From Gonapodya prolifera JEL478 (Eukaryota > Monoblepharomycota > Monoblepharidomycetes > Monoblepharidales > Gonapodyaceae), in the NCBI GenBank assembly GCA_001574975.1, contig KQ965738.1, positions 15,133 through 79,132 of the forward strand: a stretch of 64,000 bases of DNA, given 5' to 3'. Positions 28,225 through 52,042 of this stretch are shown here, one piece after another; within the stretch, counting starts at the first letter, position 1, and every line of letters begins with the position of its first letter. Below the pieces are notes generated by a model, which was not told where the DNA came from, did not search any database, and worked only from the letters and a program-made list of their open reading frames with translations. Position numbers and translations under genes: made by a program.

Positions 28225-30616
28225 TCACATGCCCGGTCCCCGTACATCGATTGAAGAAGCAGTAGATGGAGGCATCTGCGGGGTGTCAAAGTGATGAATG
28301 CACACGTCGGCACAGCAACTTCACTGATCATTACTCACGGCGTAGACAGCCATTCCAGGACCCGTCAGTCTTGCGGTGTCCGTGTTCCCATAGTACATGC
28401 TATCACCGCCATCGCCTCCGCCCCGGGAGAAGATCCTCGACGTGCCCGCCTGGATCCTTGCCCGCTCAGCCAAAACGGCGCTGTGCGTCTCCATGGATTG
28501 TGACACGAATCGAGACATACTCATAGAGGGGTTGTAGCCGACCCCCGGAGGAGCGAGGTACGAATTGTCTGCGGGCGCCCCTTGGTAGTCGGAAAGGCGC
28601 AAGCACGAGCTACACGAGGCGTTTTAGTGGTGACCAGTATTCGACATATCAGGACAGCCACTCACAGTGGAATCATTCCAAACTGTCCTGTTTCCCGGTT
28701 CCATCCCATCGCCCATCCATCACGGAAGACATCTTTCAGTTCCACATATTGACCCGGCTTCGCAAGCATCTCGTCATCTGCTGAAGGGTCGAACTGACAA
28801 CGTCCACGCATCGTCAGACATATTGCTCTACAATCGGCCGCCGCCAACACTTACCCTGGTGGTACACTCCATGGGTGGACCATCGTAGGGCACGCTGAGT
28901 TCGTTCATGGCTCCCATCGGGCCAGCGATACTCTTGAACAACCAGTGAATTTGTGCCTTTTAATGCACGTTCAGCACGTTCAGAATTTGTCAATGATCCG
29001 CCATCGCGGTTCCAACAATTTTAACCAGAATACACACCTGCTGGGATGGAGGGGGCATCCCTCCAACCATTCCCACCACTCCTGTCTTCACAAAGCTATT
29101 GTTGTCGTCGGCGTACATAACACCGCTTTGCCCCATGCCCATGCTCCCATTGAGTGATGGAAGGTGAGACAAGGGAACTGGGCTCTGCGGGCCGTCGAAG
29201 GGTTGGTTTGGAGGGCGAGATTTCTTGCTGGGTGAGTTTCGGGGTCGGGACGCGGCATAAGACTCTGTACCACCGAATCGCTCTGAGTGAGAAGCAGTCG
29301 CAAGAGGCAAGCCCACAAAACTGACGTACCCATCACCCGCTCCCGCGCGGCGTTCTTGGCATTGTTCCTTATGACAAAGTAGCCCGCCGCTCCAATAACA
29401 GCCAAGCCAGCAAGAACCCCTCCCGCGATGGCGCCGACACTCGGGCCGCCACCCCCTCCTCCAGTATCTCCACCCGCTGCGGGATCATCGACTACATCTG
29501 TCGCAATACCAATGATGGTCGTGATCGTTCCCGTAGTGACTAGATGAAAAGGATGAGATGTCTGCCCAATACTGGACTTGAAGCGGCTTGCAACTCACTT
29601 TGTCTTGTAATGGTGGTAGACCGGCGAGATGTGGCACCTTATTTCGCCCCGATTAGATTCCGTGTCAGTTTATAGCGGCCTCCACGACTTACTTGTGCCT
29701 GCCCTTGTTGTTGCGGCGGGGGCGGATGTCCTGGCTGCAGCAGATTGGGTTGTTGGGGCAGCCGCTGCGCTGGCTGAGAGAAAGTGATGTCACACAGAAA
29801 GCCATTCGAAACCAAAGACATAACACTTACTAGTGCTTGGAGCATCAGATGGTGCAGCGGCGGATGTGGAGGAAGCGGCAGCAGGGGGTGCTGGCGAATC
29901 GGGAGTAAGTCGCATTCGAAGTTACGGGGAAAAATTTGTCAAATGGGTGAACGTACCCGAAGTTGGGGGGGGAGCAGCAGATGACGTTTGCGGACCTGGA
30001 CTGCTCGAGGCCGCAGATGTTGCTCCACCTCCACTCGTCGTTGGGGCTGAAAACGAAGCGATTCGGTCACACGTCGGTTATCGATCAACACGGCTGTGAT
30101 AAAAACTCACTGGGGTCGGGACAGCAGGATGTGTCGCCAAGACAAGCTACGTAGCCTTGACTACACTGACAAGTGGCACCAATGACTCCTATGAGTGAAG
30201 AATTGTGGTCCCACAATCATTTGCGTGTTCAGCATCCTTTCAATTGTTCGGAGAGCCAGTCACCTCGGCACACAAAAGGGGTCATACATCCTCCTGATAG
30301 CGTGGAGCAGGATTGCCCAAAAGTGGGAAGGCCACCACCCGGAGGAGGAGCAGATGATGTTTGGGCTGGCGGAGGTCCACCACTCGTCGTTCCACCCCCG
30401 TTAGTGGCGGTTTGGGCCACGACGCTCGAGACAAGCAAGAGCGCGATCGCTGAGTGAGGGAAAGGTGGGATGGTGTGGTGCGATTGGAGGAGGATGGCAG
30501 ATGACAGCCACCCCCAGTACCAAGGGTGGTAGAAGGAGTAATCCAGTCCATCAGGAGACGATGAGCGGGCAATGGAACGTATGGCCAACAAACCTGACGC
30601 CGCCAACGCCTTCATC
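28225..30616 (-). CDS. Gene A: single-span mucin-like membrane protein with cytoplasmic SH3 domain (A/D subtype)
   Basis: Signal peptide MKALAASAIALLLVSSVVAQ is created by an intron inside it (30455-30595). Then a Gly/Pro/Ser-rich part, Cys-rich stretches (GQSCSTLSGGCMTPFVC; GVIGATCQCSQGYVACLGDT + SCCPDP) and a long Ser/Thr/Pro/Ala-rich stalk. The membrane span is VGAIAGGVLAGLAVIGAAGY at ~29400 with a basic stop-transfer RNNAKNAARER. A disordered linker ends in HWLFKSIAG and SVPYDGPPMEC. The SH3 domain is FDPSADDEMLAKPGQYVELK + DVFRDGWAMGWNRETGQFGM. The tail is SRFVSQSMETHSAVLAERAR, and a last exon ends VRGPGM (stop 28225). The type I orientation suggests a wall/surface sensor binding proline-rich partners inside. 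Divergent from gene B. Exact function unknown; the architecture is well supported, the stalk exon joins less so. Confidence 0.75.
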
Positions 30617-30997
30617 CCGCGCGCTTGTCTTCGAGCCATGGGGTGGGCTTGTGTCCAAAAGAGGGCAAGCGATTTTACGCCAAACCGCACCAAGGCACCA
30701 ACTTCGGTCTCCAAAAAAAAGGTCAATTTTCTCCCAATAGGTCGTTCAAATGTGGAAGTGACATTACTTTTTGCTGTTCTCAAAAATACGGAGATACAAT
30801 GGTATGTTTTGTTGCGATGTGTTTCCCATTTTTTCCCCACTTTGCAACAAGAGCAAGAGCTCAAATTTTCACAGATGTCATTCCCAAAAATATATTGGTA
30901 TCATACGAAGAATGTCAGGTGGGGAGGTGTGAGTGAGGAGCACTGTAGAGGCCAAGCAGTGAGAGTGAGGGCTTCTGTCTCCTGCGAACCGGTAACG
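30617..30997. promoter_or_regulatory. Shared divergent upstream region of genes A and B
   Basis: 381 bp separate the ATGs of two paralogues transcribed away from each other, so both promoters must lie here or overlap. No coding signal is convincing, although an open frame runs in from gene B's start. An A-rich tract (~30714-30722) and an AT-rich patch (CCCAAAAATATATTGGTATC, 30883-30902) are the only visible landmarks. Confidence 0.5.
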
Positions 30998-33337
30998 ATG
31001 ATGTTGTCTTCATCGGGGATATGGCCCATCCTGGCCGGAATAATCGCAGCTACGCTCGTCGATGGGGCGGAGCTTCCTGCGTGGTCAATGAGTGGTTTGT
31101 AGAACACACGCCATTCTCGTTTTTGTGGAGACAACTCAACCTTGAATCGACCCGACACCATGCGATCTCTTGCCACATCCAACGGAAACATCGGAAAATT
31201 GCCTTGATAATCAGTCGCCTACTCGGCCGCGGGGGAGTTCCCACAGTTTGCTTCTTTCTCCGGGAGTCATTTGGAACGACGACTGTACCTTGGTGTTGAA
31301 CAAGTACAATTGTGCCCCAGTGGAGGAGTTATTCCAATTCAGGGTGTCTGCTGCGATGGAGGTGGTTGGTGTCCCGGGGGAACAACATGTAATGGGACAG
31401 CATGTTCTGGTACATGTCCAAGTATTTGCAGTAACGTGTGCACGAAGTGAGTTCTTGGTGGTATTGTAGTAATCCGCGACGTGCTCTTCTCATCTTTTGG
31501 AAACGAACAGCGTCGCATATGCTCCCGGGGACTGCGGGCAGTGTGGCAATGCTTGGTATGTCTTATCCACCATCCACCCCGCCTTGGATTCCTTTGCAAT
31601 TCCAAAACTCATCTGTTGTCCTCACAGTCCATCGACCACTAACGGAGGCGGTGCACGCATCTGCACCAATGGCGCCTGTTCTATAAGTTGCTTCAATGGA
31701 TACACCCTCACAGGATCCACCAACTGTGTCGCCGCGAGTGCAAATAGCTCCACATCTTCCAGCTCCAGTTCTTCGAGAACATCGTCATCGACCGGATCCC
31801 CAACCACGTCGAGCTCATCGTCCTCCTCATCCTCGTCGACCACATCATCTACTACCTCTAGGAGTTCAACTACCTCGACGTCGTCAAGAACTTCCACACA
31901 GGCTGCCTTGTCTGGCCCGTCTGCTACGGGTACCGCCTCCACAGGAGCGAACATGGGGAATGCTGAGTGAGTGCGATCCGCCTTGAGCGTTTGAATTACA
32001 CACCTCCACGAATGACATAATTTTCGTTCAAAAGTGATAAAAACGGCGGCGGCGGCTTAGCTCTTGGAGCCATGTGCGTTCCTTGTTGATAGAAACTCGT
32101 CAGAGGCGGCGTCCCTCACATCATCCAAACCCCGCCTCCCTTTTCTTTTCAGCATCGGCATTGCGGCCGCCGGCGTGGTTGCCCTCGCTGTCATCATCGG
32201 GGGTGCCATCTATCTCACCCGCAAGAAACCTGCCCCTCCTGCACCCCCATCATCCGTTACAGTTCCGCTTGCCCCGAACTCTGGCTCGTGGTCCGTTTCT
32301 GCACCGTCGACGGTCAGCGGGCAGCAGCAATTCCCTCAGCAGGGGGTTTATTATGCTTCAGGGCTCCAGCCCCCGCAGAATCTCCAGCCGCAGATGTCTG
32401 GGTGGGTGAATGATTGATAGGACGAATGAGTCCGTGAAGTAAATGTTGGGTATCCCAGGCCGAGTACGGCAAGTGATTGGAATTGGGCCAAAACGTCGCA
32501 AGGGTAAGCTCCCTGTGTCACTTCAGCCTCTCTTTCCTTCCTGCAAACCCCCGTCTATTTCCCAGTGGTGCTCCCCCGTCCCAGACGTCGGCCGGTTCGA
32601 CCCTCATCGGAGCTGCGGCAGTTGGTGCCGCAGGGGCATATGGAGCGCAGGACCAACAAGCCCACGTGAGTGCTGTTGCACGACTTGCCGCCACCCAGAC
32701 TACCTCCAACATCACTCTTCCCAACTTCCGCAACAGTGGTTCTTCTCGAGTTTAGCTGCACAGCAGGGCAAAATGGGTGACGATAGTATTCAATACATCG
32801 GACCTCCGCTTCCAGTCGTGGCTGCACACGACCCAACAGCGGAAGATGAGATTGCGCTGTCACCTGTAAGGCGAAGATGTTTTTTTTTTTTTTCATCGAA
32901 GTTGGAAGAATCATTCTTTTCTGGTTTGAAGGGAAATTTTGTCAACCTTGCAAGTGTATTCAAGGTGAGATCACTTCAATTCGGTCCAACCTTTGACCTT
33001 TTGGCTCACGCGTCCACGCCAAACAGGATGGATGGGCGATTGGAACCAACGTAAGACGTATGCCTCATTACACGAGAAGAGGCAAACCTGACGATGTTGT
33101 CGGGGCTTTCAGATTAACTCTCAAACTTATGGCGTTTTCCCTGTTGACTGTCTCCGACTTCCCTCCGCAAGCCAATCCGTGGGATCGGCCTCCCAGCGCA
33201 TAGCTTCCCGCAACGTCGCAGTGACGTCGCAAATACTGTCACAGCGTCAGTACGCAGGAGGCGCCCCACAAGGACCTGCGTTCCCTTACCCAAATCAAAG
33301 CCAGTACGGATTTGTTCGTGGTCCTCCACCATCCTAG
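30998..33337 (+). CDS. Gene B: Cys-rich single-span membrane protein with cytoplasmic SH3 domain (B/C/E subtype)
   Basis: Signal peptide MMLSSSGIWPILAGIIAATL. First Cys module: RRLYLGVEQVQLC, GVCCDGGGWCPGGTTCNGTA and CSGTCPSIC. Second Cys module: GDCGQCGN and, after an intron, ICTNGACSISCFNGYTLTGS + TNC. A long Ser/Thr run follows (coded by TC-rich repeats, 31740-31930). The membrane span is IGIAAAGVVALAVIIGGAIY at ~32160-32220, then LTRKK. The linker carries QWFFSSLAAQQGKMG and SIQYIGPPLPVVA. The SH3 domain spans four exons: DPTAEDEIALSP, NFVNLASVFK, DGWAIGTN and INSQTYGVFPVDCL. The tail has SRNVAVTSQILSQRQ and ends FVRGPPPS at 33337. Function not known; likely a surface sensor with an SH3 output, as for the other four paralogues. 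Confidence 0.75.
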
Positions 33338-33660
33338 TTCCCCACCAGTGGTGGATGCCAGAGGAAGGGAGGAATTATTATTGAATGGTCAAAAGGGAAT
33401 CATTTACAGGAGGTAGTACTATCAAACCCCTTGTTTTAAAGTCGTATTAGAAGTTGGATGAAGATATACTTGACAATCAGGACCCTCAGCCTGTCCGATC
33501 ATCACCCCCTTGACTCAAAGGATGCCAAACCCACACAAAATGCGCACAAGCGGAGGAGTCAGGTGGACATACAACACATGTCTCCAAAGACGATAAAGCA
33601 GAAAGGCCGTAAGCGGTGGTCCTTTTTGGGTTGGACGTCAACACAGTTCTCGATTCAATC

Positions 33661-34122
33661 ATGTCGATTGAACCCGTAGTTGCACCACGATCCCTCCCGA
33701 CACTCCAAACAACACACAGGATCAGTACCAAGTGAAAATCGCTGTTCCGAGTCCGGAAAACGACGCCAGGTGAGACGGATTCATCTTCAGCCTTTGTACC
33801 CAGAGATCCAACTGAATCGGCGGAAGTCGCCTCATCTCGCACTGCAGATTGTCTGGTCGAAGTGCCCAATCAGGGCACAGCAACTGTTGACACGGTGGCA
33901 CCACCTGCTGACAAGGTGACAAGGCCTGCTGACAATGGGAAACAGCCCGCTGACAAAGTCCAACCGCCCGGGAAGGCGGTTCGTGAGGAAACCGAGCCAC
34001 GAAAGCTTGACATTGGAGAAAGATCAAAGAATGATCGCTATGGTTGGAAGCGACTCGACGAACTACGCAAGAGTGACTATGACCCAAAGATGGTTGGGCC
34101 AATTGACAGGCTACCGTCGTAA
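33661..34122 (+). CDS. Small hypothetical protein with P-A-D-K/N repeats
   Basis: Not recognised. A spliced model gives MSIEPDQYQVKIAVPSPEND, then RDPTESAEVASS, then three repeat units (PPADKV, RPADNG, QPADKV) ending in PPGKAV, and a charged C-terminus (RSKNDRYGWKRLDELRKSDY with DPKMVGPIDRLPS). The model needs two very short introns (about 44 and 34 bp), so the N-terminal half is uncertain; the C-terminal frame 33780-34122 is open and continuous. The repeat is visible in DNA as repeated CCTGCTGACAA. No signal peptide or membrane span. Confidence 0.4.
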
Positions 34123-34761
34123 TTCCATACGAACGTGAGACGTTTTGTGGAGAAGGACTCGATGAGAACTGGAGCTGGAACATCAAAGTTTTGACTTTTT
34201 CCCTCCAGAGGAGTTTTCCTTCTTTCCTAAAACTTTGCATAGTACATCAGAGGTAGAAATTTGATTTGCGAGAATGAACAACGATTTGATTTTCTGAGTT
34301 CTGACTAGTAGGGAAGCGTGAGTGCGACAGGCCCGAAGTGTTTTGTCATGAATACCACACAGCAACACACACTTTGGCCCCCACCGCGATGTGTTGATTG
34401 TTCTCCAGTACTTCTCTCATGAAGCAGATTCTCTGGTACCCGGAATGGTGGATGAAGACATACAAGGGAAAAAAAGAAGAGGTGCCAAACTGCCTGGGCA
34501 TGGGGCGTTCCTTGATCTCACTGGCGGCGGTTGCCTCCTCGTCCAGCATGCGGCACGATTGGACCAAAGAACTTGCCACACCGAAAACTTTCTTGCACTG
34601 ACCACTGGACCTCCCAGATGCACTGGATGCCTATCGGGCACTCAGAATCGGTGCTCGGATGGGGGAGGGAATACTGGGAACCATGGATGTCACATATGGT
34701 CTCTTGGCAACCACTGAATCGACATCAGAGCACCAGACGTGCAAGATTTACGGCGTGGAGT
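34123..34761. other. Intergenic region, no gene supported
   Basis: Open frames on both strands here are short and mutually overlapping, with no domain or splice chain. The right end is the upstream region of the AA9-like/expansin-like gene; the frame is open upstream of its ATG but carries no recognisable protein. Confidence 0.45.
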
Positions 34762-36879
34762 ATGGCGCTGGCGATTGTTGGACTTGTTTTGGTGGTCCAA
34801 GGAGCAGTGGCGGGACCTGTTCTGTTTGCGGCGAACACGCCCACAAAGCAGGGGGCGATGTGTGGTGAGTTTCAGACGCTTCATCGGTTGGTGTTTTACA
34901 GAAAAGTTAAAACTCTTGGGCACATAGTGCGGCAGACGTTTCCAACTGCTGGGAACACCGTCAATTCGGCCATACGGGATCTCACTTCACAGGATCTTGT
35001 CTGTGGTTGGGGCGCAACTACTGCTGCTAAAGAGGTGTGCTCGGTCAACGCAGGAGACACCATTGGGTTGGTAAGTATCCGAACGGAATTGTTAAACGCG
35101 TTGTGTGCTTCACTCTGGAGTGAGGTGGTTAATGCAACTCATTCACCCCAAAGGTGTTTGGTAACCAAATGCCGGGCGACAACATCATTGCAACGGCAGA
35201 TGTAGGACCTTGTGAAATATACATGCAACAAACGCAAAGTGCCCAGGTTGCGCCCTCGAGCGCTGGCTGGTTCAAGGTGTTCGAAAACACATTTACCACG
35301 GCGAACGGGGTGAGTGAGCAGCGATGCATGTAGACTGCGGGAATATGTCTCCCATACTTTCTTTCTGACCGTTGGATAACTGGGCAGTGGTGCACGGTGT
35401 CGCTTATCGGTACCGGTGGTGTCCTCTCTGTCACTCTTCCGCCCAACTTACCCATTGGCAGCTACAAGCTGCGAGCAGAAATATCAAGCGTACGCACAGC
35501 GGATGTCCTTTTTACCCAAAATGCCCAGCGCGGGATCCAGTTTTTCGTTTTCTGTTTGGATGTGATGGTTACAAATGGGCCAGCCAGTGGAACATTCCAA
35601 CCTATGGTGAACATTCCAGGATACCTCACCGGAACGTCACCGGGTGTTATTTACGACCCTCGCATGGGACATGGCGCCAACAACGTAAACGTGGGCATGG
35701 ATTTTCCGAATCCATTCGGACCTGCGGTGGCGACCATCGCGGCAACGGGTGGTACGTGACGAGTTCTCTGAAATGGCTTGGCAATGCCCCACATTTGTTG
35801 CCATTTAGCGCCGGTCGCTGCGGCACCTGCTCCTGCTGTTCCAGTGCCCCCCCCCTTGCCCGCCCCATCGCCCTCGCCCAAAGTTACACCAGGCGCCATG
35901 GACATGCCGACAATGTCAACAAGCGCACTCACCATGCCGACTGGTGGAATGACCCCGATTGGGGGCAACGTGCCACCCGCCATCGCTCCACCACCTGTTC
36001 GCATACCGACACAGCCAGACGGACCAACCACGGCTCCATTGAATCCACTTGACCAGGCTCCAAACGTACTTCCCCTACCAGTAGGAATAGGATTACCACC
36101 TCCCGCGGTGGCGCCTGCACCATCTCTGGCCGTTCCTGCACCTCAGCCTGCCCCCAGTCCGGCTCCGTCTTCGATGCTCATGCCCTCACCGACGCCAGCA
36201 CCAACTTCAGCAGCGACTTTTCCGACACCCTCTCCCGCAGCTGTCGTGCCAGCACCAGCAATGGGAGCACCGCCAGTTATGGCCTCCACTCCGACTTCTC
36301 CAGTAGCTCCCCCTACTGTGCAGTCTCCAACACCGTGGAACCTATGGAATGACACAGTGTGGTCTGGACTCGGAGTGTGTAGTCATCAGGTTCGTGTCTC
36401 TTCTTCGTGCAATACATGGATCAATTTGCTGATTGTGGATTAACGAACAGAACATCACTTTGGAAAACAATTGCATTACTGGTACCTGCAATATTCCGTT
36501 TTTCCGTGATGAACTAGTTGCCGCGCTGGTATGTCACCTTGTTGTCAGTACACTATACAAATCCTCCCTGACATTTAAAATATTCTACTGGGCCAGAGTA
36601 CACAAGACATGCCAAATAACGATTTCTGCGGTCATCGAGTTGTGATGATGAATTACAACTCTGGCAAAGTTGTGTCAGCGAAGGTTGTCGATAGGTAAGA
36701 ATAGTGCCCAGGCACTTCAACCTCATTGTCGTCGAAAGTAACACCATGAAAATTAAAGCTGCACCGAATGTCGACAAGGCTCGCTCAAACTCAGCGCACC
36801 AGTATGTGACCTTCTTGGTGCGCTGTCGGACACGCGCATCGCTTGGAAAATTGGGAACCAATGGAATGTGATTCCGTAA
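34762..36879 (+). CDS. Secreted AA9-like (LPMO fold, copper ligands lost) plus expansin-like double-psi barrel fusion
   Basis: Signal peptide MALAIVGLVLVVQGAVA, cleavage likely before GPVLFAAN. The first domain follows the AA9 layout: VNSAIRDLTSQDLVCGW, VCSVNAGDTIGL, GWFKVFENTF, VTLPPNLPIGSYKLRAEISS, GIQFFVFCLDVMV, GYLTGTSPGVIY. However, the N-terminus is not His, the usual H-K-G-P position reads D-V-G-P, ALHAA reads SVRTA, and the axial Tyr (QFY/QLY) is Phe. A ~200-residue Pro/Ala/Met-rich linker follows (35800-36330). The last domain reads GLGVCSHQ, FFRDELVAALSTQD, DFCGHRVVMMNYNSGKVVSA, KVVDRCTECRQGSLKLSAP and ends IAWKIGNQWNVIP. This is the RlpA/expansin double-psi barrel with its Asp residues kept. 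Likely a wall-loosening or carbohydrate-binding secreted protein. Intron joins are well supported by homology. Confidence 0.78.
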
Positions 36880-37081
36880 CGTCGCAGGTGAGTTCCGTGG
36901 AAATGCGATGGATAGGAATTGATTCACAATCAATCACTTACTTCCCACAGCAACGCATTGCACATCTTGAGTAAATACCACACTTTTAATTATGGAATAT
37001 ACCATGCTGCGTAATAGGGCCTTGTGGTTTGATGGGCTGGTCCCCCACATGTCATGTATGACTCGAATACAAATAAAAATT

Positions 37082-40000: not shown

Positions 40001-42333
40001 TTGTGGTGCGCCATCCACGCAGCAAGGCGGCCTGGCTGACCAATATCCTCAGCGGTCGGGATATGGAGCGTCGCACCAAGGAATAGTGGGGTGAATACTG
40101 AGTTGATGGGATTCGAGAGAAAAATATTGTACTTCGGCTTTTAATGAAGCGCAGGTTCACATATTGAACTCACTGTCCCTTTGAATAGGGTCGTGCGCAA
40201 TGCCAGATAGCATAGTAAACCTCTCTTTCTCGGTCAGTCCAAACTCCATGCTCATCCACGGGTAGAAGTGAGTCAAGCTGAAGTGCCTGCCACGAACACC
40301 TGAAAACACCACGATGACGACACAAGCCATTAGACTCCTTTCCTTGTCCAGTGAGAGCTATTCACCGAGATCGTACCTTTTGGTATCCCCGTACTTCCAC
40401 TGGTAAAACTCAACGTGCCTACACTGTCTGGTCCTAACAGAACACCAGGAAACTCTTCTCCAACTTCCCCCCACTCCCTCGTGGCCTCCTCTGCCCCTTC
40501 ACCCTCCCATCCTCCTGAGACGGACCCATTGTCCTTAAGTTCCATGGCGGGGATCTCGCAAGCGAGGAACAAGGTGTCCCGAACGTGGGTACGGACGGCG
40601 TCCGGTAGAGGACCTGCCCGGCGAAGAATGAGGAGAGCGCGAGGTTGAGCGACCGTGAGGTAGATAGTTTGACGTTGGGGAGGGTACGCGGGGTCTGGAA
40701 GTGTGGGACCACAGCGAGGAGGCAATGGCGTTACAATAATCTGTTTTGTTCAAAATCAACACGACTTTGGGAAAGTGGGAACGCACCAATGACACTGAAC
40801 GTTCCTCCGGCTTTGAGGACACCCATGATCGCAATCACGAGATCCACCCCCCTGTAGCTGTAGAGCGTCACAACGTCCTCCCTCTTGAGCCCCTTCTTGA
40901 GCAAGTAGTTTGCCACTCGATTCGACGCGCGGTCAATCTGCGCATAGCTAAACGTGCGCTGCGGGCAGTCCTCGGGCTTGTCGCCCACACCCGCCCCTGT
41001 GTCGATCGACTCGACGACGCACACGCGGTCCGGGTGGGCCTCTGCGTTCTTGTGGAACACGTCCGTGATGGCGCCATGCCAGCCGTCCCAGTCCAAGTCC
41101 ATTGTCGGGTCCGGAGTGCACAGCTGGGCGCGCTCAGTCGCAATGCTCAGCTGTCCTATGGGCGCCGACGGGTTCTTGGCGGCGGCCACGAGAAGCATGT
41201 CGGCCGCGTCGAGCATGTCGCGGATTCGCGCGTCAGTGAACAGGGCGGCGTTGTACCGAACGCGGAGACGAAGGGGGAGAATGCGGCGGAGGGTCGGAAG
41301 TGGGTGCAGGTAGACCGTCAGGTCGGACAAAAGGTGCGGTGCGAACGTGCCCGCGGTGGAGCCGCGGCGGGCCAGGTGTGCAGCGTGAGGTTCGGGCGCT
41401 GCGAGAGTGTCAGATTGGTCCGACTCTTGGTCCGATTGGGGCGCGGACTCGACAAAGCGAACACGCATGAGGGCCGGAGGGGGTGGGCCGTCTTGCGGGG
41501 TGCCCGGTGGTGGTTGAGGATAAAGGTGGCGCATCAAGAGAGAGAAGGGGACCGGATCAGAAAGGGAGGTGTTCTGGGCCTGTGAAGGGGAGGGCAGAGG
41601 AGAGTGTCAGCCAACAAGTAAGAGTGAAACATAGTCGAGAATGCAAGTCGAAAACGATGCTTTTCCAAGTCATTGCTAGGACACTTGTAGTGTCGTCTAA
41701 AATAGAAAGGTTCAGAAGGCAGAGGGATGGTGCACGCTCTGCGCGCGATTATTCGACTCCGGCGGCATCCTCCGTCACCGCTTCGCGCTCAGACCTCGGG
41801 CTCGCCAACGCTCGCTGCCTCTCCTACTCTTAACACACCTGAGAGACAGCCTTGACGACGTCTGCAAAGGTCATTGACTTGTCGATGGCGCATCTGAGCA
41901 CGGACGTTTCGACCTGTGCCCCGTTTGGATCGGCCTCGAGCGAGGGAAACGACCATCCTGCCGCGACATCCTCCTCGCCCGAGTACTTGTGCAGAAGAAC
42001 AAAGAATGCTGCCAGGACCACGGCGAGCGGGGTCGCAGACTGGTCGATCGATTGGCCGTTGACGTTGTGACTGTTTTGTTTGTGTTCCCCTGCCCCTCCA
42101 GACGAGTGCATCGCCACGCAGACACTGGCTACGGCCGCTGCTGCATCCTCGCCAATGTTTCTGGCGTGCTCCGATTCCACCACGCGTGGGGGAACGGGGC
42201 GGGGATAATCTGTGGGAAGGGAAAGCTCCGTTACATTGCTGAGGCGAACGCGCCACCGCTCCAGAGAAGCGTCCAGCGAGTCTCCGCCAGTTGTTGTGGC
42301 ATCATCGGCCACCGTTGGTGCCACCGGTCCCAT
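37082..42333 (-). CDS. LYS2: L-2-aminoadipate reductase, large subunit (Lys2)
   Basis: Fungal lysine pathway enzyme: activates alpha-aminoadipate with ATP, loads it on a carrier domain and reduces it to the semialdehyde with NADPH. Start [18 protein letters not shown], followed by [20 protein letters not shown], which is the known Lys2 N-terminus. Adenylation motifs are [34 protein letters not shown] and [20 protein letters not shown] with [16 protein letters not shown]. The carrier is [20 protein letters not shown] (Ser for phosphopantetheine). The reductase has [54 protein letters not shown] (Tyr-x3-Lys) and [15 protein letters not shown]. The end contains [20 protein letters not shown] and [14 protein letters not shown]. 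About 1,450 residues, eight to ten exons; full length. Needs a Ppt-type transferase (Lys5) coded elsewhere. Confidence 0.95.
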
Positions 42334-42717
42334 GAGGTCCAAGGATCAATGTCTTCTGGTGAAAAGGTTCCTTCCCGCACCCGTTCAACAATAGCACCGG
42401 ATGTTGCCTTGAGCGTATTATCAATCGATTCCTCGCAAGTGATGATGGGCAGACACGCGAATCGTCCGATGACCCGGGTGGAAGGGAGGATTTTGAGAAC
42501 CTGCAGTGGGAAGCAAAGAATGCCGTGGCCCCGACAACAGAAAAATCTTTGGAACCGTGCCCTCTGCAGTCAGGCCTTCCTGCCACAAAACCACACAATT
42601 TCATTTCGGTGAGGGTGAGAGAAGAAGCAGTAAAGTGTAATGATCTTTTCTAGTCCGAAGAAGCGTCTCGATGTCAGGCTAAGCTCACGTCTGGTTCACG
42701 TAGCAAAAGATAGGAAA

Positions 42718-43187
42718 TCAGCGTGTGGCCATCCGCGTGGTTCGTTTCCTCTGCAGATTTGCTTCCGTGATGATTTTATTGTGTCCGCAGCAGCCCCAGC
42801 ACTGGCACACGTCAACTCGCCCACGTCCAGTGAAGGTGCACCCGCCGTTTGCATTGGATGGTACCGATTCTGATGGCGCATGGACTTCTGCGCCTGGTGC
42901 GATCTGGACTGGATCATCTGTGTCATCTGACGCTTAAAGCCGGGTGTGGGAAAGCCACCTCGGCCCAAGTCACCTGCACGCGGATTCACGCCACCTTTCT
43001 CGAACTCTTCAGCACATGTTGGCAAGAGTGCAAAAATATTATTCGTCTCGATGACTACGCGATGGTTCCTCAGCATTACGTCCTTACTTATGTCCGTGTT
43101 GTGAGATAGTACCTGGAGCGATTTCGACAATTGGACTCGCAATTCTCCCAGTATGCTTCGATTGAAACTTGTCTTCATCATTAACAT
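42718..43187 (-). CDS. Small hypothetical protein with C-terminal Cys cluster
   Basis: Not recognised. Model of three exons: MLMMKTSFNRSILGELRVQL + SKSLQ, intron, VIETNNIFALLPTCAEEFEK, intron (gtggcg..tttaag), then an acidic linker (SDDTDDPVQIAPGAEV) and GGCTFTGRGRVDVCQCWGCC + GHNKIITEANLQRKR, stop at 42718. The Cys/His cluster (C, then C-x-C-x2-CC-x-H) may bind a metal. Another frame stays open to 42696 without splicing, but it is compositionally poorer. About 115 residues. It sits 385 bp upstream of LYS2 on the same strand. Confidence 0.45.
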
Positions 43188-43307
43188 TTAATTGATGCAT
43201 TCAGTTAACTATGGCAGGTAAAAATTTAAACAAGGACGTCGACAATGACATCCAATACAACTTGGTGGTCGTCAGCCCACAACGAATCCACTCGTATTAT
43301 CCGACGA

Positions 43308-45711
43308 TCAACGCGGGAAGAAATTGCTCGGTGGTCCCCGAACATTCACGTCGGGGCTCTGGAAAACCAAAGTTTCGCGGCGTCAGTTGCCGATCGAGGC
43401 GCGTGCTCCGAGGAATAAACTCACCGGAATCGCTAGCTTCGATCCAAAACCTGAAGGGGGTCCATAACGGAAAGATTGCCCCGGCGCATTCGATTGAACA
43501 CCTTTAGGCGCCATCATTCTTCGCTCTGATAGCACCTGTGACGTAACCTCAAAGGAACGGGAGTCTAGACGGGCAGACTCGAGTTGACTGCTCGGAGCGG
43601 AGTCGTCAAGGCGGAGTGACGTGCTGTTTTTCAGAAAAGTATGAGCGAGAAATACGGAACTAGTTCGGGGGAAAGCAAGCATACGTACAGCGGAAGCACG
43701 CCGTAGTTCCCAGTCGTAAGCTACGTGAAGACATCGATTAACTATGTGCGCTCGCACTAGAATGTGAAATGTGGGCCTACATTGGTTCCAGTCGCCCAAC
43801 CATCTTTGAAGACCAATCGAACGTCCACCATATGTCCCTACGAAGAAGAAGAAAAGCTTTAATTTCCTTTTCCTCCATAATACAGTGCACAGCGGATGAT
43901 GACTCACAGGTGCCAACGCGATTTCATCCTCTGCCGAAGGATCATGCTATTCGCAAGAGTTGAAATCGGACCTTTACATCAGCGAGATGTACTTTTACTC
44001 ACCCGCGTCGATACAACGAACGGAGGTCCATTATATTGGACGCTGAGATGATTCATTTTATTTTGGGCGCCAGCGACTTTTGTAAAGAACCACTGAGGTG
44101 AAGAAAATCGAAACGCTCAAGTTGACTTGCGACGTTGAAGCTTTGGAGTCGTGGTGCCAATGTTGCACTTACGTGGGGTTGGAATCCGGGAGGTAGGTTT
44201 GGTTCCCCGAGTCGTCCACTTGGGGTAGTTGCGCTTTTTGGGCGTCCCATCTTCTTGCCATTCAAAGCGAGTGACGCATTTCTGTTTCTGTTGGTGAGTA
44301 CGTCAATACGTCATATCCTCCACACACCCAGAGACGAGACAACACCAGGCAACACCAAACTCACGGGAAGTTCATCTCGGATCCCCAATCACTCGCACCG
44401 TCGCTCTCCATACTCAATCGCCGAGCCGCCGCACCGACGGGTGTGAACATCGCCATGGCCGTCGGTAAAGCGGACGAGAGTGGTGCAGCGGACAGCATGG
44501 CAGAGTCGGGAGCGGGCCAGGGCCGCTTCTTCTCGGCGGACATTTTCTCAAAGTTGCTCTCTCGGACTTCTCGAAGCTCCGCATCGCGTTTTCGTTTTTG
44601 ATTCCGTTTCACGGCCGACCAGACTGGGATGAATAGGAGAAGTCCAAGGCCAAGTGCGCTACCAGCTGCAATGCCGATGATCGCAGGGAAAGGTAACCCA
44701 TTGTTGGCGCTGAGGAGTAAGGCGTGAGTCACAGAACAAGGGGCGACTCGGCGACTTGGCATCTTCACTCACAGCCCGCCCGTCACGCCGTTGGTTCCTG
44801 CACCAGCCACCGCCGTCTGAGTGCTGCTGCCCAGAGCAAGCGCTGTCGTGGTAGACATCATTGACATGGACATCATACCCATACTTGTGGCCATCCGCAT
44901 GGAGGCGGTGTCCGTCATAGCGGAAGCGGGGGCTGAGAGCGGTCCGTTCCCGACCACACAAGTCGTACCATTCAATGTGTAGCCAGTGAAGCAGGCCATT
45001 CCACACTGTCCATTCGAGCAAAAACGTACTCCATTGGTGGGCCGCGGGCTGTTCAGAGAGAAGTCATTGCATTAATGCCTCTGTCGCCAGCTTAGCTGTA
45101 TAACACCCACCAGTTTAGCCCACACTGCGACAGCGCATCAAGGATCAAAAGGAGACATTATTTTTTTTCATTCGCTGCTCTCCGCAGACATGTGCACTTA
45201 CAGCGCCGCAATTTTGGTAGTCGTACCTCACACTGAACGTGGGCGAAAACTTGTCACACGCACGCAGCGACATATCATAGCGGTATCGCTTACTCGGTGC
45301 ACATTGTGCCGCATTTGTTTGGGCAGGTACCGACGCAGTTGGTACCTGAACAGTTGGTACCAGTTGGGCACCATCCCGCAGTGCAGCAGACAGCATCAAC
45401 AGGCATGTAGCCACTCCCGCACGCGGTCAGTTGCGTCACACCGTTGTAAAGGCGCTTTCCGAGTCCCAAAGAGCTTGATGAACCAGCATCAAGCACTCCG
45501 TCAAGTACAAGGTCTTTGATGCATCCAACAAAGCAAACATCCCGCGATGAGAGATCTTGATTGGTGTCATGGCAATTGCAGGTTCAATGGGAGGCTCACC
45601 GTTCTGACTGAAAACAGCATCAATGTCCATTCCAACATTCCGTGCACCTCCGACCATGACGCTGGTCGAACCCAAGACGAGGACTGCCAACAAAGTCCAA
45701 GATAATCGCAT
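43308..45711 (-). CDS. Gene C: Cys-rich single-span membrane protein with cytoplasmic SH3 domain (B/C/E subtype)
   Basis: Signal peptide MRLSWTLLAVLVLGSTSVMV at 45711. First Cys module: GKRLYNGVTQLTACGSGYMP, VDAVCCTAGWCPTGTNCSGT, NCVGTCPNKCGTMC. A second module ends CFTGYTLNGTTC. A short Met/Ser/Thr stalk follows (MSMMSTTTALALGSSTQTAV). Membrane span: IIGIAAGSALGLGLLLFIPV at ~44640-44700, then KRNQKRKRDAE. The linker ends PQWFFTKVAGAQNKM and SVQYNGPPFVVSTR. The SH3 domain is AEDEIALAP + GHMVDVRLVFKDGWATGTN + TTGNYGVLPL, with introns at the same places as gene B. The tail is SRSFEVTSQVLSERRMM, and a last exon gives DVNVRGPPSNFFPR (stop 43308). Overlapping frames at 43690-43750 in other phases are shadows. 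Confidence 0.75.
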
Positions 45712-45713
45712 GT

Positions 45714-45998
45714 TCAGACTTGATTGCTCAGATTTTGGATGAGTGATGAGAGGATGGTGTTCTTGTTCTGGTCAAGTGTGATGGTTTTGAGCGGAAGGGC
45801 TTCAGCGACCGACGAGCGTCCGCCCCACGAAGACAGCTGAAAGGGATCGATCCAAAAGTCTTTCCCACTGGAAACAACAAGGCTCAGGAAGGGCAGGTGG
45901 AAGGTGGAAACGGTCAGGGTTGTGGGGTCTCTCAGGCCGCGATGGGGCGCACCAATCTGCCTCTGTTGGCGCCGCAACTGATCTTGCCGAGCATCCAT
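45714..45998 (-). CDS. Small unassigned open frame upstream of gene C
   Basis: A 94-codon frame (MDARQDQLRRQQRQIGAPHR ... LSSLIQNLSNQV) ends 2 bp before the gene C ATG on the same strand. It has no recognised domain. It could be an upstream frame in the gene C leader, a small gene, or chance. It is the only candidate in the 464 bp between genes C and E; the rest of that gap (45999-46175) is AT-rich 3' flank of gene E. Confidence 0.2.
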   Translation of the reverse strand: MDARQDQLRRQQRQIGAPHRGLRDPTTLTVSTFHLPFLSLVVSSGKDFWIDPFQLSSWGGRSSVAEALPLKTITLDQNKNTILSSLIQNLSNQV

Positions 45999-46175
45999 CT
46001 CATCTTAGCCCACGATGAGAAAATTTGTGCAATGATATTTACCATCAAATTACGGTTCGCAGAGAATCATTAAAAAATAATAATCATAAATCCTTTCCAC
46101 TGGGAGAACTCATTTGCCGAATCTAACATTAGGGTAACATTTATCAGGGCATAAGCAAGAGGCGCGTAGGTGAGG

Positions 46176-48119
46176 TTACGGAGCAAGAGAAAGAGAGGAG
46201 GTTACAGATGGAGGGAAGTGACCACCGTAAGGATACCCCAAGCTATGCTGACGGGGACGGGTGAAGGAAGGAAGTGGAGCTTGTGGCAAGATTGCGAGCG
46301 AATGAGAGGCGTCGCTCAAAGGGGGTGAGGGACCGACGCTGAGGCAGTCCACTGGGCAAAAACCATGAGATCCCGTTGTAAGCTGAGCAAAAGAAGAATT
46401 GTCAGTAAAGAAAAGATGCAGAGCCAGTGCACAACCGTTGGCCGACATCACTCACATTTTCTGCAAGAGTCCATCCATCCCTGAACACAATTCGCACCTG
46501 GACAAGATGTCCCGGTAGAAGATACATCTCATCTGCAACAGCAGGGTTGTGCTTTTCAAAAGGCTATTAGTGTACGCACACACCAAAAGAGACATCACCA
46601 AACCCTCACGATCGATGAAGCGACCACCGGATGGCCCTACATCAAGGAATCAGCTCGAAGCTCAAAGTCATTCAGATCACACCTGTTACAAACCTCGTAC
46701 AAAACCATGTCCTCGTCGTGCTTTCCCGACGCGGACGCCAGATAAACGAAATACCACTGAGAAAGTGGTCAACAAAACCGGAAGTACGGGGGCCTTCAAA
46801 AACGCGAACTCACGTGTGGTGAGATCCGCGCATCGGGTTTGTGAGTGCTGCGAGCAAAACCGGAATTCATCAAAGCATTCCTTTCTGATTGATCAGCACA
46901 ACTACGCACTTGCTTGATGGAGGTTGCGACGCAGGGGGTGGACTCTGCGTCGGTGCAAATGTTCTCGATTGCGACGAAGCACTTCCTAAGGATGGAGGGT
47001 CTCTTTTGAGAACAACAGGACCTTTCGGTGTCAGTATTGTCGGATCTTTCTCCTGCGTTAGAAGGGACCGGGACCGTCGTCTCCAAAGAGAGAACGCAAG
47101 GATCGTGAAAAGAATGCCTGCAACTGCAGCAGCAAGGCCAATACCAATAATTGCGCCTATGGAGAGGGCATTCTCATTTCTAATCGTCGCCAAGAGGGTT
47201 GCGGTGAGAAACTTTCAGACGATTTGTGGATCACAAAGGCCTCACAAATTTAGCACTGGGGAGACGGAATTTTGACTCGAAGCCGTCTCTGTCACCAGTG
47301 AGTATGACGTTGAAGCGGATTGAAGAAGGGAGGAGGGAGAAGTCGAAGAGCTTGGAGAGGAAGTGTACATCCGAGATGGAGCTGACGTTACCGTCGTTAT
47401 TGTATTTGTTGCGGGTACGCAGGAAGAGGAAGAGAGCACAGATCCACTTGGGCAGGCTGTGAAGCCAGGGATGTCAAACTTCTTCGAAAGTGAGGAAGAA
47501 CGACTAAATACCTCGTTTGCAAATACCGTTCTCGCAGTACATCAACCCCCCTGTTGCTGGCTCACTACGCACGGGGAAAGGTCAGTGCCTGGGTGGTTGA
47601 CAACTTTGCAGAAGGCTGCCTTACCACACATTGCCACATGAACCACAGTTGTTGAACTTTGAGATGGTCGGACAGAGTGAGTTCGTGACGTAACCCATTT
47701 GATGCAGTATGACCTACATCATATTGCGTGCTGCGAAGGTGTACGACAAGACAATACATAGTTGGCAAGGGACAAGAGTACAAAACCCCCTCTCTCATGC
47801 TTACTCAGTGCACACAGCGCCGCACGTGGAAGGGCAACTTCCGTAGCAAGTGTCCGACGTACAGGTACTGCCAGCTGGACACCACAGTCCCGAGGCTCCA
47901 CAACATACTCCGCCTACTGCCATGAATCTCCCACCGCAAGGCGATAGTTGTTGTATACCCAGATATAACCGAGCTTCCAGGCGTTGAGGTCCATGTCCAG
48001 ACGATGGCATCTGGCCGAAGAGATTAGGTGGAACTGGATGCGAGCGAGAGATGGTAAACGCCTGACACCAAACGGCCCGAAGACGCAATCGGTTCGGCAA
48101 CAGCTAGCACGCTTAACAT
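46176..48119 (-). CDS. Gene E: Cys-rich single-span membrane protein with cytoplasmic SH3 domain (B/C/E subtype)
   Basis: First Cys module: ARLYLGIQQLSPCGGRFMAV, GVCCGASGLWCPAGSTCTSD, TCYGSCPSTCGAVC. Second: GGLMYCENGIC, then ACPSGSVLSSSSCVPAT. A Ser/Thr stalk follows (PSSSTSPSSLLQSASTSYSL). Membrane span: IGAIIGIGLAAAVAGILFTI at ~47110-47170, then WRRRSRS. The linker ends SQWYFVYLASASGKHDEDM and VLYEGHPVVASS. The SH3 domain is HNPAVADEMYLLPGHLVQVR + IVFRDGWTLAEN + LTTGSHGFCPVDCL. The tail diverges from the other paralogues (PLPSFTRPRQHSLGYPYGGH) and stops at 46176. The N-terminus is uncertain: an ATG at 48119 (MLSVLAVAEPIASS) lies within a minisatellite and makes only a weak signal peptide; the true first exon may lie further upstream. 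Confidence 0.68.
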
Positions 48120-48230
48120 TGTTTAAGCGGGTTCGGCCCATCCTCGAACCGCAGACACAATCGGTTCGGCAGCAGCTCGCAGGCTTACCATTTTCCAAGC
48201 GAGTTCGGCCCATCCTTGAATCGCTGTGAA
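48078..48230. repeat. Two-copy ~70 bp minisatellite at the 5' end of gene E
   Basis: Two adjacent copies of a unit containing CAATCGGTTCGGCA.CAGCT and GCG.GTTCGGCCCATCCT (about 48078-48152 and 48153-48230). On the gene E strand both copies contain an ATG followed by a similar Ala/Val-rich reading (MLSVLAVAEPIAS and MVSLRAAAEPIVS). The repeat may therefore have duplicated the start of gene E's signal peptide. Confidence 0.65.
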
Positions 48231-49046
48231 GTCGAACGAATATATCCAAGTGATGGTTGACAATCAGAACAGGGATCCTGGGCAAATCCGGAAAGGAATA
48301 CTGAACGATTATGTCGATCCACCCTCGATGCCCCGGGGGAAACAAGAAAAAGAGGTGGAAAGAGGGGGAAAGCAGGTTCTCAGGGCAGGGCAGGAAGCAC
48401 ATAAAACTTGCAAGTAGCCCCTCAGCAAAACACTTTTCGCGTTCGTACGAAGGTATTTTTAATTAAATTTATGTCCCTTATCGTTTTCAAACCAAATCTT
48501 GATGCTCCGTCGAACGTCCGAGCATTACTGGTTGGGCAATATCAAGAACAAAGATCTCGAATAGGTCCAGGGAGCAAGAGACTTTGAACACAAAAGTTTG
48601 AAGATGAGAGAAGAGTTCGGAATAAGCGCCCAGGTCATACGTTGGTGGGTGCCTCTCCGAAAAAAAAAGCCAATTTACAATCGGGGATCCCGCCCGCGAC
48701 CACACATTCAAACTTCAGTCCCACAGACAGGCCTCGCTCCCCCGGAGACTGGAGATGAAACAACGGCGGATGGCACAGGGACCGGGGTCTGGTGAGCAGT
48801 GCGGCAAGGGGACCACCCCATCTGTTACCGCTTTTGGAATGAAGTGTTGTCGATGCCCGTCGGGCTCTTGTTCCTTCGATTTCTCACTCTCTTCGTTATG
48901 TCGGCACCTCGCATCACCTGTATACGTCGGTCTTGTTTCCCTTCTGTGATTTTGGCTTTACGGTCGTTGCTTCCTTCCGCTCCTTGGATAATCCCTCCGC
49001 CGAAACACAACACCATTCCCTGAATACGCTGGAACGTTGACCAGGA
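48231..49046. promoter_or_regulatory. Divergent upstream region between genes E and D
   Basis: No convincing gene. Short frames (for example 48598-48795) show no domain. Two paralogues are transcribed outward from here, so promoters of both should lie in this ~0.8 kb. An AT-rich patch (TTTTTAATTAAATTTATG, ~48455-48472) is the clearest landmark. Confidence 0.4.
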
Positions 49047-51078
49047 ATGGTACGGGGTATCGCTGTGTTGCTGATGGTGGCATTGCTACTGGCAGTGCCG
49101 CCACCAACTGTGCGAGCCCAGCTTTTGCCACCAATCCTTGGTGACGCATCCTCTGCGGCGTCGTCCACTGCTGCTTCGACTATAGCAGCAGCGTCATCGT
49201 CATCCGCGCGGGCATCATCTTCTTGTGAGTGCTGCGATCGTTGCTCTCAACCAATTCCTTCCATAACGAACCATCTTTGCTTGCCTCAGCATCTGCTCGT
49301 TCCAGCAGTTCTTCACCCTCACCAACCCCTTCATCTTGTGGGTTTTGGTCCCGTTTGCGTTCGTCGTCACCATGACTTTGCTCACGGACTCACCATTAGC
49401 TGCCCCTCCTGAGCCTTCGACAACTTCTGGTGGGATTGAGTTCATCTCCCGCGCTAATCCAGCCGCCTAATTAGGGTGTTCCGTTGGATGTTTTTCACCT
49501 TTCAGACGCTCCATCGACCCTTCCTGCATCATCCACTACAACTGATTCTTCATCTTCCCCCACTCCTTCGTCGTCATCTTCAAGCAGCAGTACCGGATGT
49601 GAGTCACTGGGCTCCTAAAAGCGAAAAGAAAATGCGAAGGGGATAGTTTCAAGATTCAGTCAGCTCATCGCCATTTTTCGCAATAGCCTCTGCTTCCCCA
49701 ACCCCATCAGCGACCGCCCCCCCCAACAACCCACCCCAGCCAAACCTTATATTCGGTCTACCAGTGTGGGCAGTAGGCGCCATCGGTGGTGGTATTGGAG
49801 GGGTGCTCCTGTTGATTCTCTGCGTGCTTTGCATGCGCAAAACGGGAAGGAAGACGAGGCCCAAGCCAGCCGACTATTACACTTCTTGGGATGAGCCGAA
49901 GAGGAGCAGAGGTGAGTGACGCCGTCCCTATATCAAGAAGAAATTTCGTCAAAAACACATCTCGTAGAATCTCCGCGCTCTTCCCCTTCGAGCTATGCCC
50001 AACCCTACGAGTCTTACGACATGCCCCCGTCACATCACGTCTCCCGCCAACAGACAACTCGCCCTGATGCAGTCGCGCGGGGATACACTAAAGGGCCGCA
50101 AAATCGTCGGCAGCAGAATCTTCAGCAGCCTCAAGGAGCATACGGTGGGCCACCAAAGAGCATGGCACCGTACCTGCTGAACGCACCACAAACCGTCGCC
50201 ATGGGTGACTACAATGACGGATACAACGATGGATACCATGATCAACCTCCACCAATGCCTATGTCCATGTCTCCCCCACCGCAGCAGCAGGCCCCTGCCA
50301 CCATGGTCAACGTGAAGGGACCCCCACCTTCCATGGCGCCAGGCTCTCTTGGAGGAGGACCTCAAGCGCACTGGCTATTTGAGAAACTGGCAACACAGCA
50401 GGGCAAGCTTGCAGAGCAGAGCGTGCCGTATACAGGCCCTCCACTTGAGGTTCACACAGCAGTAAGTAGGAGAATCATTTCCTTTATTTGAGCAACATTG
50501 AGAAATTACCTTCACCCCTGTACCTGTCAGTACGAGGCGACGGCTTCGGACGAAATGTCGTTATTCCCCGGACAGTCTGTGGAGCTTCGAGACGTCTTTC
50601 GCGATGGCTGGGCGGTAGGGTGGAACCGCGACACGGGAGGATTCGGAGCCTTGCCTCTGTACGTAAAGTTTTCCGGCATCGTTCTTCTTTGAGTTTGACA
50701 CACTTCTCTATCCCAGGGATGTACTGTATCTTAACATCGCCGCAGCGAGCCTTGGTGTTCCACAGTCGCACGCACGGACCTCCAACCGGATGAACCGCTT
50801 CGTCTCACAAACCCTCGCGACACAGAGTTCCGTCCTCACCGAACGACAGAAACTTCGTTCCGGCCAGAGTATGTTCCTTCGGAAAGGGACGTCCGGATCG
50901 ACTTTGAAAGTCAACGAAGATTCCGAGGAAATGCTTGGTTCGGAGAAGTACAGCACATACTCGGTACGTTGAGGCGTCTCGACACAATTATTCCTATATC
51001 TCACACACCACCACAGGCCATGGCGCCTCTGCCTGGTGGAACACAGGTCCTTCGCCCTGCCCAGAGCAGGCGGATGTA
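49047..51078 (+). CDS. Gene D: Ser-rich single-span membrane protein with cytoplasmic SH3 domain (A/D subtype)
   Basis: Signal peptide MVRGIAVLLMVALLLAVPPP. The extracellular part is Ser/Ala/Thr-rich with almost no Cys, unlike its paralogues. Membrane span: VGAIGGGIGGVLLLILCVLC at ~49775-49835, then MRKTGRKTRPK. The linker is long and Pro/Gln/Met-rich (YNDGYNDGYHDQPPPMPMSM) and ends HWLFEKLATQQGKLAEQ and SVPYTGPPLEV. The SH3 domain is YEATASDEMSLFPGQSVELR + DVFRDGWAVGWNRDTGGFGA (50530-50660). The tail is MNRFVSQTLATQSSVLTERQ, and the last exon AMAPLPGGTQVLRPAQSRRM stops at 51078. SH3 and tail match gene A best. Predicted type I surface protein; partners and ligand unknown. Confidence 0.75.
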
Positions 51079-52003: not shown

Positions 52004-52042
52004 AAGTACGAATTTCCTTAAATCACAGAAGCCATCTCTCCA

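What the first reader, a model, noticed from the sequence alone, without database searches (positions are those of the whole stretch)
28225..51078. Local family of five sensor-like proteins: secreted head, one membrane span, cytoplasmic SH3
Seen: genes A, B, C, E and D each have (i) a signal peptide (weak in E), (ii) a Cys-rich and/or Ser/Thr-rich exterior, (iii) one span followed by basic residues, (iv) a disordered linker, (v) an SH3 domain with the D-W-A-x-G-x-N signature. Known: in yeasts, mucin-like heads (Msb2/Hkr1) and the SH3 output (Sho1, four spans) are separate proteins of the osmo/wall-sensing pathway. Inference: here head and SH3 are on one chain, and a cluster of five with diverged heads but conserved cytoplasmic parts looks like a receptor family with variable input and shared output.
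Basis: partly seen in the sequence, partly recalled or inferred. Interest (0 to 1): 0.9.

Follow-up and report, generated by a model that had tools for sequence, protein, structure and literature searches.

The report
Five fungal membrane proteins with SH3
A fungal chromosome carries five related genes for likely cell-surface proteins that join an outside head, one membrane span and an inside SH3 docking domain on one chain, a layout best known from the yeast cell-fusion protein Fus1, here multiplied into a small family with three kinds of head.

Summary
The observation largely holds. Five intron-rich genes (A 28225-30639 -, B 30998-33337 +, C 43308-45711 -, E 46176-48010 -, D 49047-51079 +) can each be read as one open chain with GT-AG introns: exterior, one span, basic residues, 73-159-residue linker, an 80-residue SH3 block (38-57% identical), tail. 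The SH3 is real: PDB profile E=2.7e-8; Pfam SH3_9 in 5 of 5, though below Pfam's cut-off; leave-one-out E 1.8e-9 to 9.6e-19; SH3-like partial model.
Corrections: D's exterior has no cysteine; no convincing signal peptide was found for E; the heads are not all diverged. B, C and E share a head with 16 invariant cysteines; A has a different, 8-Cys head.
As in Fus1, SH3 groove positions 37 and 54 are not aromatic, so non-PxxP ligands are predicted. The layout suggests an inverted duplication of a divergent gene pair. I rate it a new variant of a known kind: a membrane-tethered SH3 scaffold/receptor family.

The parts
28225..30639 (-). Gene A, 13 exons, 528 aa (a start at Met9 gives 520 aa): signal peptide, Ser/Thr-rich exterior with 8 Cys (30121-30309), one span, linker, SH3, tail ending DVRGPGM
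   Evidence: model; span, Cys; SH3_9 E=0.019. The first intron (30450-30593) was placed by hand; the other exon borders were already in the unguided run
30998..33337 (+). Gene B, 11 exons, 505 aa: signal peptide, 16-Cys head, Ser/Thr stalk, span, linker, SH3, tail ending VRGPPPS
   Evidence: (SH3_9 E=2.7e-6)
43308..45711 (-). Gene C, 13 exons, 538 aa: signal peptide, 16-Cys head plus 2 further Cys, stalk, span, linker, SH3, tail with VNVRGPP
   Evidence: (SH3_9 E=0.0073)
46176..48010 (-). Gene E, 11 exons as modelled, at least 403 aa: 16-Cys head, stalk, span, linker, diverged SH3, short tail; true 5' end and signal peptide not found
   Evidence: SH3_9 E=0.0013; 5' search
49047..51079 (+). Gene D, 9 exons, 510 aa: signal peptide, Ser/Thr-rich exterior without Cys, span, long linker, SH3, tail
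   Evidence: (SH3_9 E=7.9e-4)
28591..28947 (-). A: conserved HWLF...GPP + SH3 block (aa 349-428)
32663..33163 (+). B: HWFF...GPP + SH3 block (aa 369-448)
43605..44175 (-). C: HWFF...GPP + SH3 block (aa 383-462)
46332..46816 (-). E: HWYF...GHP + SH3 block (aa 273-352)
50369..50735 (+). D: HWLF...GPP + SH3 block (aa 335-414); 50531-50662 was used for the partial AlphaFold model
31277..31739 (+). B: 16-Cys head (aa 54-162)
44946..45457 (-). C: 16-Cys head (aa 71-174)
47407..47974 (-). E: 16-Cys head (aa 13-118)
29373..29429 (-). A: membrane span (aa 231-249)
   Evidence: hydropathy; coordinates
32154..32210 (+). B: membrane span (aa 239-257)
44628..44684 (-). C: membrane span (aa 241-259)
47098..47154 (-). 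E: membrane span (aa 181-199)
49779..49835 (+). D: membrane span (aa 157-175)
48077..48224 (-). 72-nt tandem duplication (2.1 copies, 84% matches) just upstream of the modelled part of E, where a signal-peptide exon would be expected

Best explanation
The five genes encode a paralogous family of type I membrane proteins of a fungus: a signal peptide (4 of 5) leads an exterior out, one span holds the protein, and a flexible linker carries a variant SH3 domain and a tail inside. Shown by sequence: open one-chain gene models, span, SH3 homology, common ancestry of the cytoplasmic block, a shared 16-Cys head in B, C and E, loss of the aromatic groove residues at SH3 positions 8 and 54 and a small residue at 37. 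Inferred: Ser/Thr stalks are O-mannosylated and sit in the wall at the plasma membrane; the SH3 works as a membrane-tethered docking site, as in Fus1, that gathers polarity, secretion or MAPK components where the head is engaged or concentrated; because the groove is altered, its ligand is probably not a classical PxxP peptide. The three head types would let one output be placed or triggered by different wall or surface cues.
For: Open GT-AG models for all five. SH3: PDB profile E=2.7e-8 to vinexin SH3 and many other SH3s; Pfam SH3_9 in 5 of 5; leave-one-out E 1.8e-9 to 9.6e-19; the 44-residue core exon of D has a best model at pLDDT 79.9 and the first 18 Foldseek rows are SH3 entries. One gene rather than two: in B, C and E the head borders CT| and GN.|C (phase 2), the pre-span border (phase 2) and the H|W border before the SH3 (phase 0) recur at matching places; the H|W introns of all three, CT|N of B and N|C of C came out of the run with a single SH3 anchor. 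Coding: third positions differ most in 13 of 13 pair comparisons (43-73 differences against 19-45 at positions 1 and 2). Groove (order D, A, B, C, E): position 8 T/T/A/T/S, 37 A/A/A/A/T, 54 V/C/C/S/C, with W36 and P51 kept 5 of 5; Fus1 has Cys at 37 and 54 where aromatics are usual (passage, PMC5823434) and a specificity profile without prolines (passage, PMC2756588).
Against: No transcript, so no splice site is proven, and several sites in B, C, D and E were chosen by analogy with the paralogues, so agreement at those sites is partly built in. Pfam scores stay below the family cut-off for every member. The fold test is weak: 44 residues, the other four models at pLDDT 66-69, Foldseek E 0.027 or worse and rmsd near 5 A in most rows. 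The groove inference is not unique to Fus1: Bud14 and Nbp2 deviate too, and an aliphatic residue at 37 occurs in class I PxxP binders (passages), so position 37 alone says little. No ligand, localisation or phenotype is known; topology rests on hydropathy and basic residues. E lacks a demonstrable signal peptide and the tail motif and is on a long branch (2.54 against a median of 0.79), so it may be decaying.
Confidence: 0.6

Rival explanations
1. Wall-sensing receptors proper: the head is pulled or ligand-bound and the change is passed through the single span to the SH3, which then switches a MAPK branch, a one-chain version of Msb2/Hkr1 plus Sho1.
For: Ser/Thr-rich exteriors (20-45% S+T), a strictly conserved 16-Cys head in three members, SH3 block in all. 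Sho1 with its SH3 forms complexes with the O-glycosylated single-pass Hkr1, Msb2 and Opy2 in yeast (passage, PMC8533825).
Against: No second signalling domain was found in the five proteins (Pfam); Sho1 has four spans; nothing here distinguishes sensing from static scaffolding.
Confidence: 0.25
2. Adhesion or cell-fusion proteins: the heads bind partner cells, host or substrate, and the SH3 focuses secretion there, as Fus1 does in mating.
For: Fus1 is described as a scaffold for signalling and polarity proteins that helps polarised secretion in cell fusion (passage, PMC10315666) and binds formins through its SH3 (passage, PMC3817587); three head types in one cluster suit recognition.
Against: No Pfam adhesion, lectin or fusion domain in the heads; Fus1's short exterior is not Cys-rich (recalled).
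Confidence: 0.25
3. The gene models fuse neighbours: secreted proteins and cytoplasmic SH3 proteins are separate genes.
For: No transcript evidence; exon choice partly by homology.
Against: The same order exterior-span-linker-SH3 recurs in all five on both strands, with matching intron phases in B, C and E from head to SH3.
Confidence: 0.05

Closest known systems
Fus1 (S. cerevisiae) and its Talaromyces marneffei counterpart
   Same: Membrane protein with O-mannosylated exterior and C-terminal SH3; SH3 groove with non-aromatic residues at positions 37 and 54 (passages). The family profile aligns with the Fus1 SH3 as I recall it over 52 columns, 29% identity, hhalign probability 91 (letters from memory, not verified).
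   Different: Here five paralogues in one cluster, 16-Cys or 8-Cys heads in four, a conserved HW.F...GPP stretch before the SH3 and a tail after it; none of these was mentioned in the Fus1 passages seen. Orthology not testable here.
Sho1 with Msb2/Hkr1/Opy2 (HOG pathway)
   Same: Membrane-tethered SH3 and glycosylated exteriors at the same membrane (passage).
   Different: Sho1 has four spans and the mucin heads are on other chains.
Wsc/Mid2 wall sensors
   Same: Signal peptide, head, Ser/Thr stalk, one span, cytoplasmic tail (recalled).
   Different: No WSC hit and an SH3 in the tail, which Wsc/Mid2 do not have (recalled).

Membership tests
SH3 domain | Sequence homology to SH3 domains | tested here: met
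   PDB profile E=2.7e-8; Pfam SH3_9 in 5 of 5, best E 2.7e-6, but all below the curated 30-bit cut-off
SH3 domain | SH3 fold | tested here: inconclusive
   Only the 44-residue core exon of D modelled: best pLDDT 79.9, pTM 0.51; first 18 Foldseek rows are SH3 entries, probability 1.00, but E 0.027 or worse
SH3 domain | Canonical aromatic PxxP groove (Y8, Y10, W36, P51, Y54; numbering partly recalled) | tested here: not met
   W36 and P51 kept 5 of 5; position 10 is Y/F/H/H/H; Y8 and Y54 replaced in 5 of 5. An altered groove does not exclude SH3 membership (Fus1, Bud14, Nbp2)
Fus1-type single-span SH3 protein | Exterior, one span, C-terminal SH3 on one chain | tested here: met
   5 of 5 models; topology by hydropathy; signal peptide in 4 of 5
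Fus1-type single-span SH3 protein | Non-aromatic residues at SH3 positions 37 and 54 | tested here: met
   5 of 5 against the passage in PMC5823434
Fus1-type single-span SH3 protein | Orthology to Fus1 | not testable with these tools
   No Fus1 sequence or fungal proteome held; only a remembered SH3 sequence was compared
Fus1-type single-span SH3 protein | Role in cell fusion, Pmt4-dependent O-mannosylation | not testable with these tools
   needs experiment
Sho1 | Four membrane spans before the SH3 | tested here: not met
   one inner span in each of 5 models, besides the N-terminal signal of four
Wsc sensors | WSC domain | tested here: not met
   no WSC hit at E up to 1 in five proteins

The most novel reading that the evidence does not exclude
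The cluster is a receptor repertoire built as co-expressed pairs: each divergent pair (A/B and E/D) joins one member of the A/D type with one of the 16-Cys-head type, the two pairs being an ancient inverted duplication, and the partners form mixed surface complexes whose Fus1-like, non-PxxP SH3 domains give a shared output, while the 1-1 phase exterior exons of A and D let heads be changed without breaking the frame.
Probability: 0.15. Interest if true: 0.75.

Novelty: new variant of a known kind. Interest (0 to 1): 0.5.

Why it matters
How the wall and osmotic sensing systems of yeasts were assembled is open, and little is known of surface receptors in other fungi (my assessment). A clustered family with one conserved cytoplasmic SH3 module and three head types is a natural set for asking what the head contributes and what the SH3 recruits, and suggests that the Fus1 plan can be a general receptor or scaffold plan and not a mating speciality. 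If many fungi outside the yeasts carry such families, it would be a fungal surface-protein class to map.

Tried and rejected
Relatives elsewhere: the SH3 block A1 in viral contigs gave none; in genome contigs one hit, L001 (33%, E=1e-4 relative to the candidates), which lies in a bacterial ORF that I read as a phosphomannomutase; taken as chance. The 16-Cys head in viral contigs gave L002 (44% over query residues 38-85, E=1e-7 relative to the candidates): a 2447-codon frame of many repeated NCGxCGxxC...CC units without any SH3 match. It shares the CGxCG motif with the second half of the head, not the whole head (whole-head profile E 0.035 at best in L002, on the other strand). The SH3 block of C had no match in plasmids and the C head none in phages; neither collection is expected to hold fungal genes. 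Heads: no PDB or Pfam relation worth naming (best PDB E=0.02, cerato-platanin-like, not matched on most cysteines; Stig1 E=0.21 in 1 of 3). The model of head module 1 is too poor to search (pLDDT 58.3). Print: the listings of ten searches showed no paper on such a family in chytrids or other early-diverging fungi; the library holds open-licence papers only. Of papers I read passages found by term (PMC4102429, PMC10315666, PMC5823434, PMC8533825, PMC4466140, PMC4489896, PMC3817587, PMC2756588), no whole paper; PMC4102429 and PMC4466140 had nothing on this layout (the latter notes that S. pombe lacks Sho1 and Fus1 homologues). An E model with an upstream ORF 48402-47935 was dropped because it broke the head. 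A C model was spoiled by my own anchor and replaced.

Results against the reading: SH3_9 scores are all under Pfam's cut-off; E lacks signal and tail motif; D lacks cysteines; the reversed-sequence control's best hit per search was E=0.0079-0.073 in the SH3 searches and 0.03-0.063 in the head searches, and unrelated forward ORFs reached 0.021 and 0.044 in the head searches, so fragments weaker than that (some single exons of B, C and E) do not count by themselves.
Full report
What was checked. The window is taken as fungal from the adenylation, carrier and reductase domains at 37.7-41.6 kb on the minus strand, which I read as an alpha-aminoadipate reductase, LYS2. No whole genome is held, so everything rests on the 64 kb. 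I wrote a small splice-aware reader trained on the LYS2 frames and ran it first with a single anchor per gene at the SH3 tryptophan, then with further anchors (one search failed half way), and fixed exon ends by hand.

Gene models. A, B, C, D and E read as 528, 505, 538, 510 and at least 403 residues, with 13, 11, 13, 9 and 11 exons; every intron is GT-AG and no frame holds a stop. Several sites were chosen by analogy with the paralogues, so agreement at those sites is partly built in. Sites that came out of the single-anchor run include the H|W intron just before the SH3 block in B, C and E (32665/32737, 44173/44092, 46814/46756) and head introns in B (31446/31511) and C (45111/45048). Third codon positions differ most in 13 of 13 pair comparisons (10 for the SH3 block, 3 for the head), as expected for real coding sequence.

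Anatomy. Hydropathy gives one inner span in each of five models and a hydrophobic N-terminus in A, B, C and D. Basic residues follow each span, fewest in A and B. Exteriors are 20-45% Ser+Thr. Exterior cysteines: A 8, B 16, C 18, D 0, E 16. B, C and E share a head of 104-109 residues at 46-53% identity with all 16 cysteines invariant, found again by leave-one-out at E 2.2e-15 to 9.1e-15. The linker is 73-159 residues and the part after the block 51-100. The tails of A, B, C and D share [HQT]-S-x-[VI]-L-x-[EQ]-R, and A, B and C have [DFN]VRGP near the end (read by eye from the proteins); E lacks both.

The SH3. The 80-residue block (21 of 80 columns invariant) is 38-57% identical between members. 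A profile of the five finds SH3 domains in the PDB, best vinexin at 2.7e-8. Pfam SH3_9 hits 5 of 5, E 2.7e-6 (B), 7.9e-4 (D), 0.0013 (E), 0.0073 (C), 0.019 (A) for whole proteins, all below the curated cut-off. Leave-one-out searches of the six-frame window recover each member at 1.2e-18 (D), 9.6e-19 (A), 3.2e-14 (B), 1.8e-9 (C) and 1.3e-10 (E); outside the five loci the best is 0.85, and the reversed-sequence control reaches 0.0079. The 44-residue core exon of D, predicted with the A and E exons, gives pLDDT 79.9 in the best of five models (66-69 in the others); the first 18 Foldseek rows are SH3 entries with probability 1.00, though with E 0.027 or worse and rmsd near 5 A in most rows.

The groove. 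Taking the register from the vinexin alignment, position 8 is T/T/A/T/S (order D, A, B, C, E), position 10 Y/F/H/H/H, position 37 A/A/A/A/T, position 54 V/C/C/S/C, while W36 and P51 are kept in all. W36, 37 and 54 are named in a passage of PMC5823434; the rest of the numbering is recalled. In yeast, Fus1 is named there for its cysteines at 37 and 54, and its specificity profile lacks prolines (passage in PMC2756588). Against a strict parallel: Bud14 and Nbp2 also deviate, and an aliphatic residue at 37 is found in class I PxxP binders, so the case rests on positions 8 and 54. The family is thus predicted to bind non-PxxP ligands; this is an inference.

Family history. The tree of the cytoplasmic parts groups A with D (ultrafast bootstrap 97, SH-aLRT 98), leaves the other fork open and puts E on a long branch. 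Introns of A (8 of 8) and D (5 of 5) up to and including the border after the span are all phase 1; one of A's eight and one of D's five were set by hand. Exterior introns of B, C and E are phase 2 in 9 of 14 (3 of 4, 3 of 5, 3 of 5). Gene order is A(-) B(+) ... C(-) E(-) D(+). A/B and E/D are therefore divergent pairs, each with one A/D-type and one 16-Cys-type gene, in mirror order, as an inverted duplication of a pair plus one more tandem copy would give. No repeat of 30 or more bases joins the pairs (seed 14), so the event, if real, is old.

Weak spots. E: no good signal peptide in the spliced 5' ends that I could enumerate, a 72-nt tandem duplication in that place, no tail motif, altered DGWTLAEN motif. 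It may be diverging or decaying. No transcript supports any model.

Comparison with what is known. The family is built like Fus1 and may work like it; whether it is orthologous could not be tested. What is new in this window is the multiplication into five linked genes with three head types, a strictly conserved 16-Cys head without a Pfam match at the curated cut-off, and the conserved stretches on both sides of the SH3. The second half of that head carries the CGxCG motif also seen in a long Cys-rich repeat frame of a viral contig, so that part may be a common Cys-rich module. The listings of ten searches of open-licence papers showed no paper on such a family, which is no proof of absence; I would not be surprised if proteomes of early-diverging fungi already list such proteins as 'SH3 domain-containing' without comment (recalled impression, not checked).

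Verdict. Real, mostly as described, with the corrections above; a new variant of a known kind. Architecture about 0.85 likely right; function as membrane-tethered SH3 scaffold/receptor about 0.6.

Noticed in passing
window 34751-36500 + (approximate): Between B and LYS2, frames with a weak AA9 (lytic polysaccharide monooxygenase) match (Pfam E=9.9e-4, below cut-off) and a Pro-rich region; looks by eye like a secreted wall-active enzyme.
   Followed up: partly
window 52022-52876 +: Next to D, a frame with a Q/G/Y/N-rich, prion-like stretch that looks by eye like the N-domain of translation factor eRF3/SUP35; no Pfam hit in this piece.
   Followed up: no
window 1-765 +: Piece of a retroelement polymerase (Pfam SH3_retrovirus, E=1.6e-10); unrelated to the signalling SH3.
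   Followed up: no
window 56452-62105 -: Three long open frames (637, 567, 377 aa) without a Pfam hit at the limits used.
   Followed up: no
window 28225-30639 and 49047-51079: The introns of A (8) and D (5) up to the border after the span are all phase 1, so the exons between them are symmetrical and could be gained or lost without a frameshift.
   Followed up: partly
L002 155-7495 +: A 2447-codon frame in a viral contig made of many NCGxCGxxC...CC units, open at the locus end; matches the CGxCG part of the head only.
   Followed up: partly
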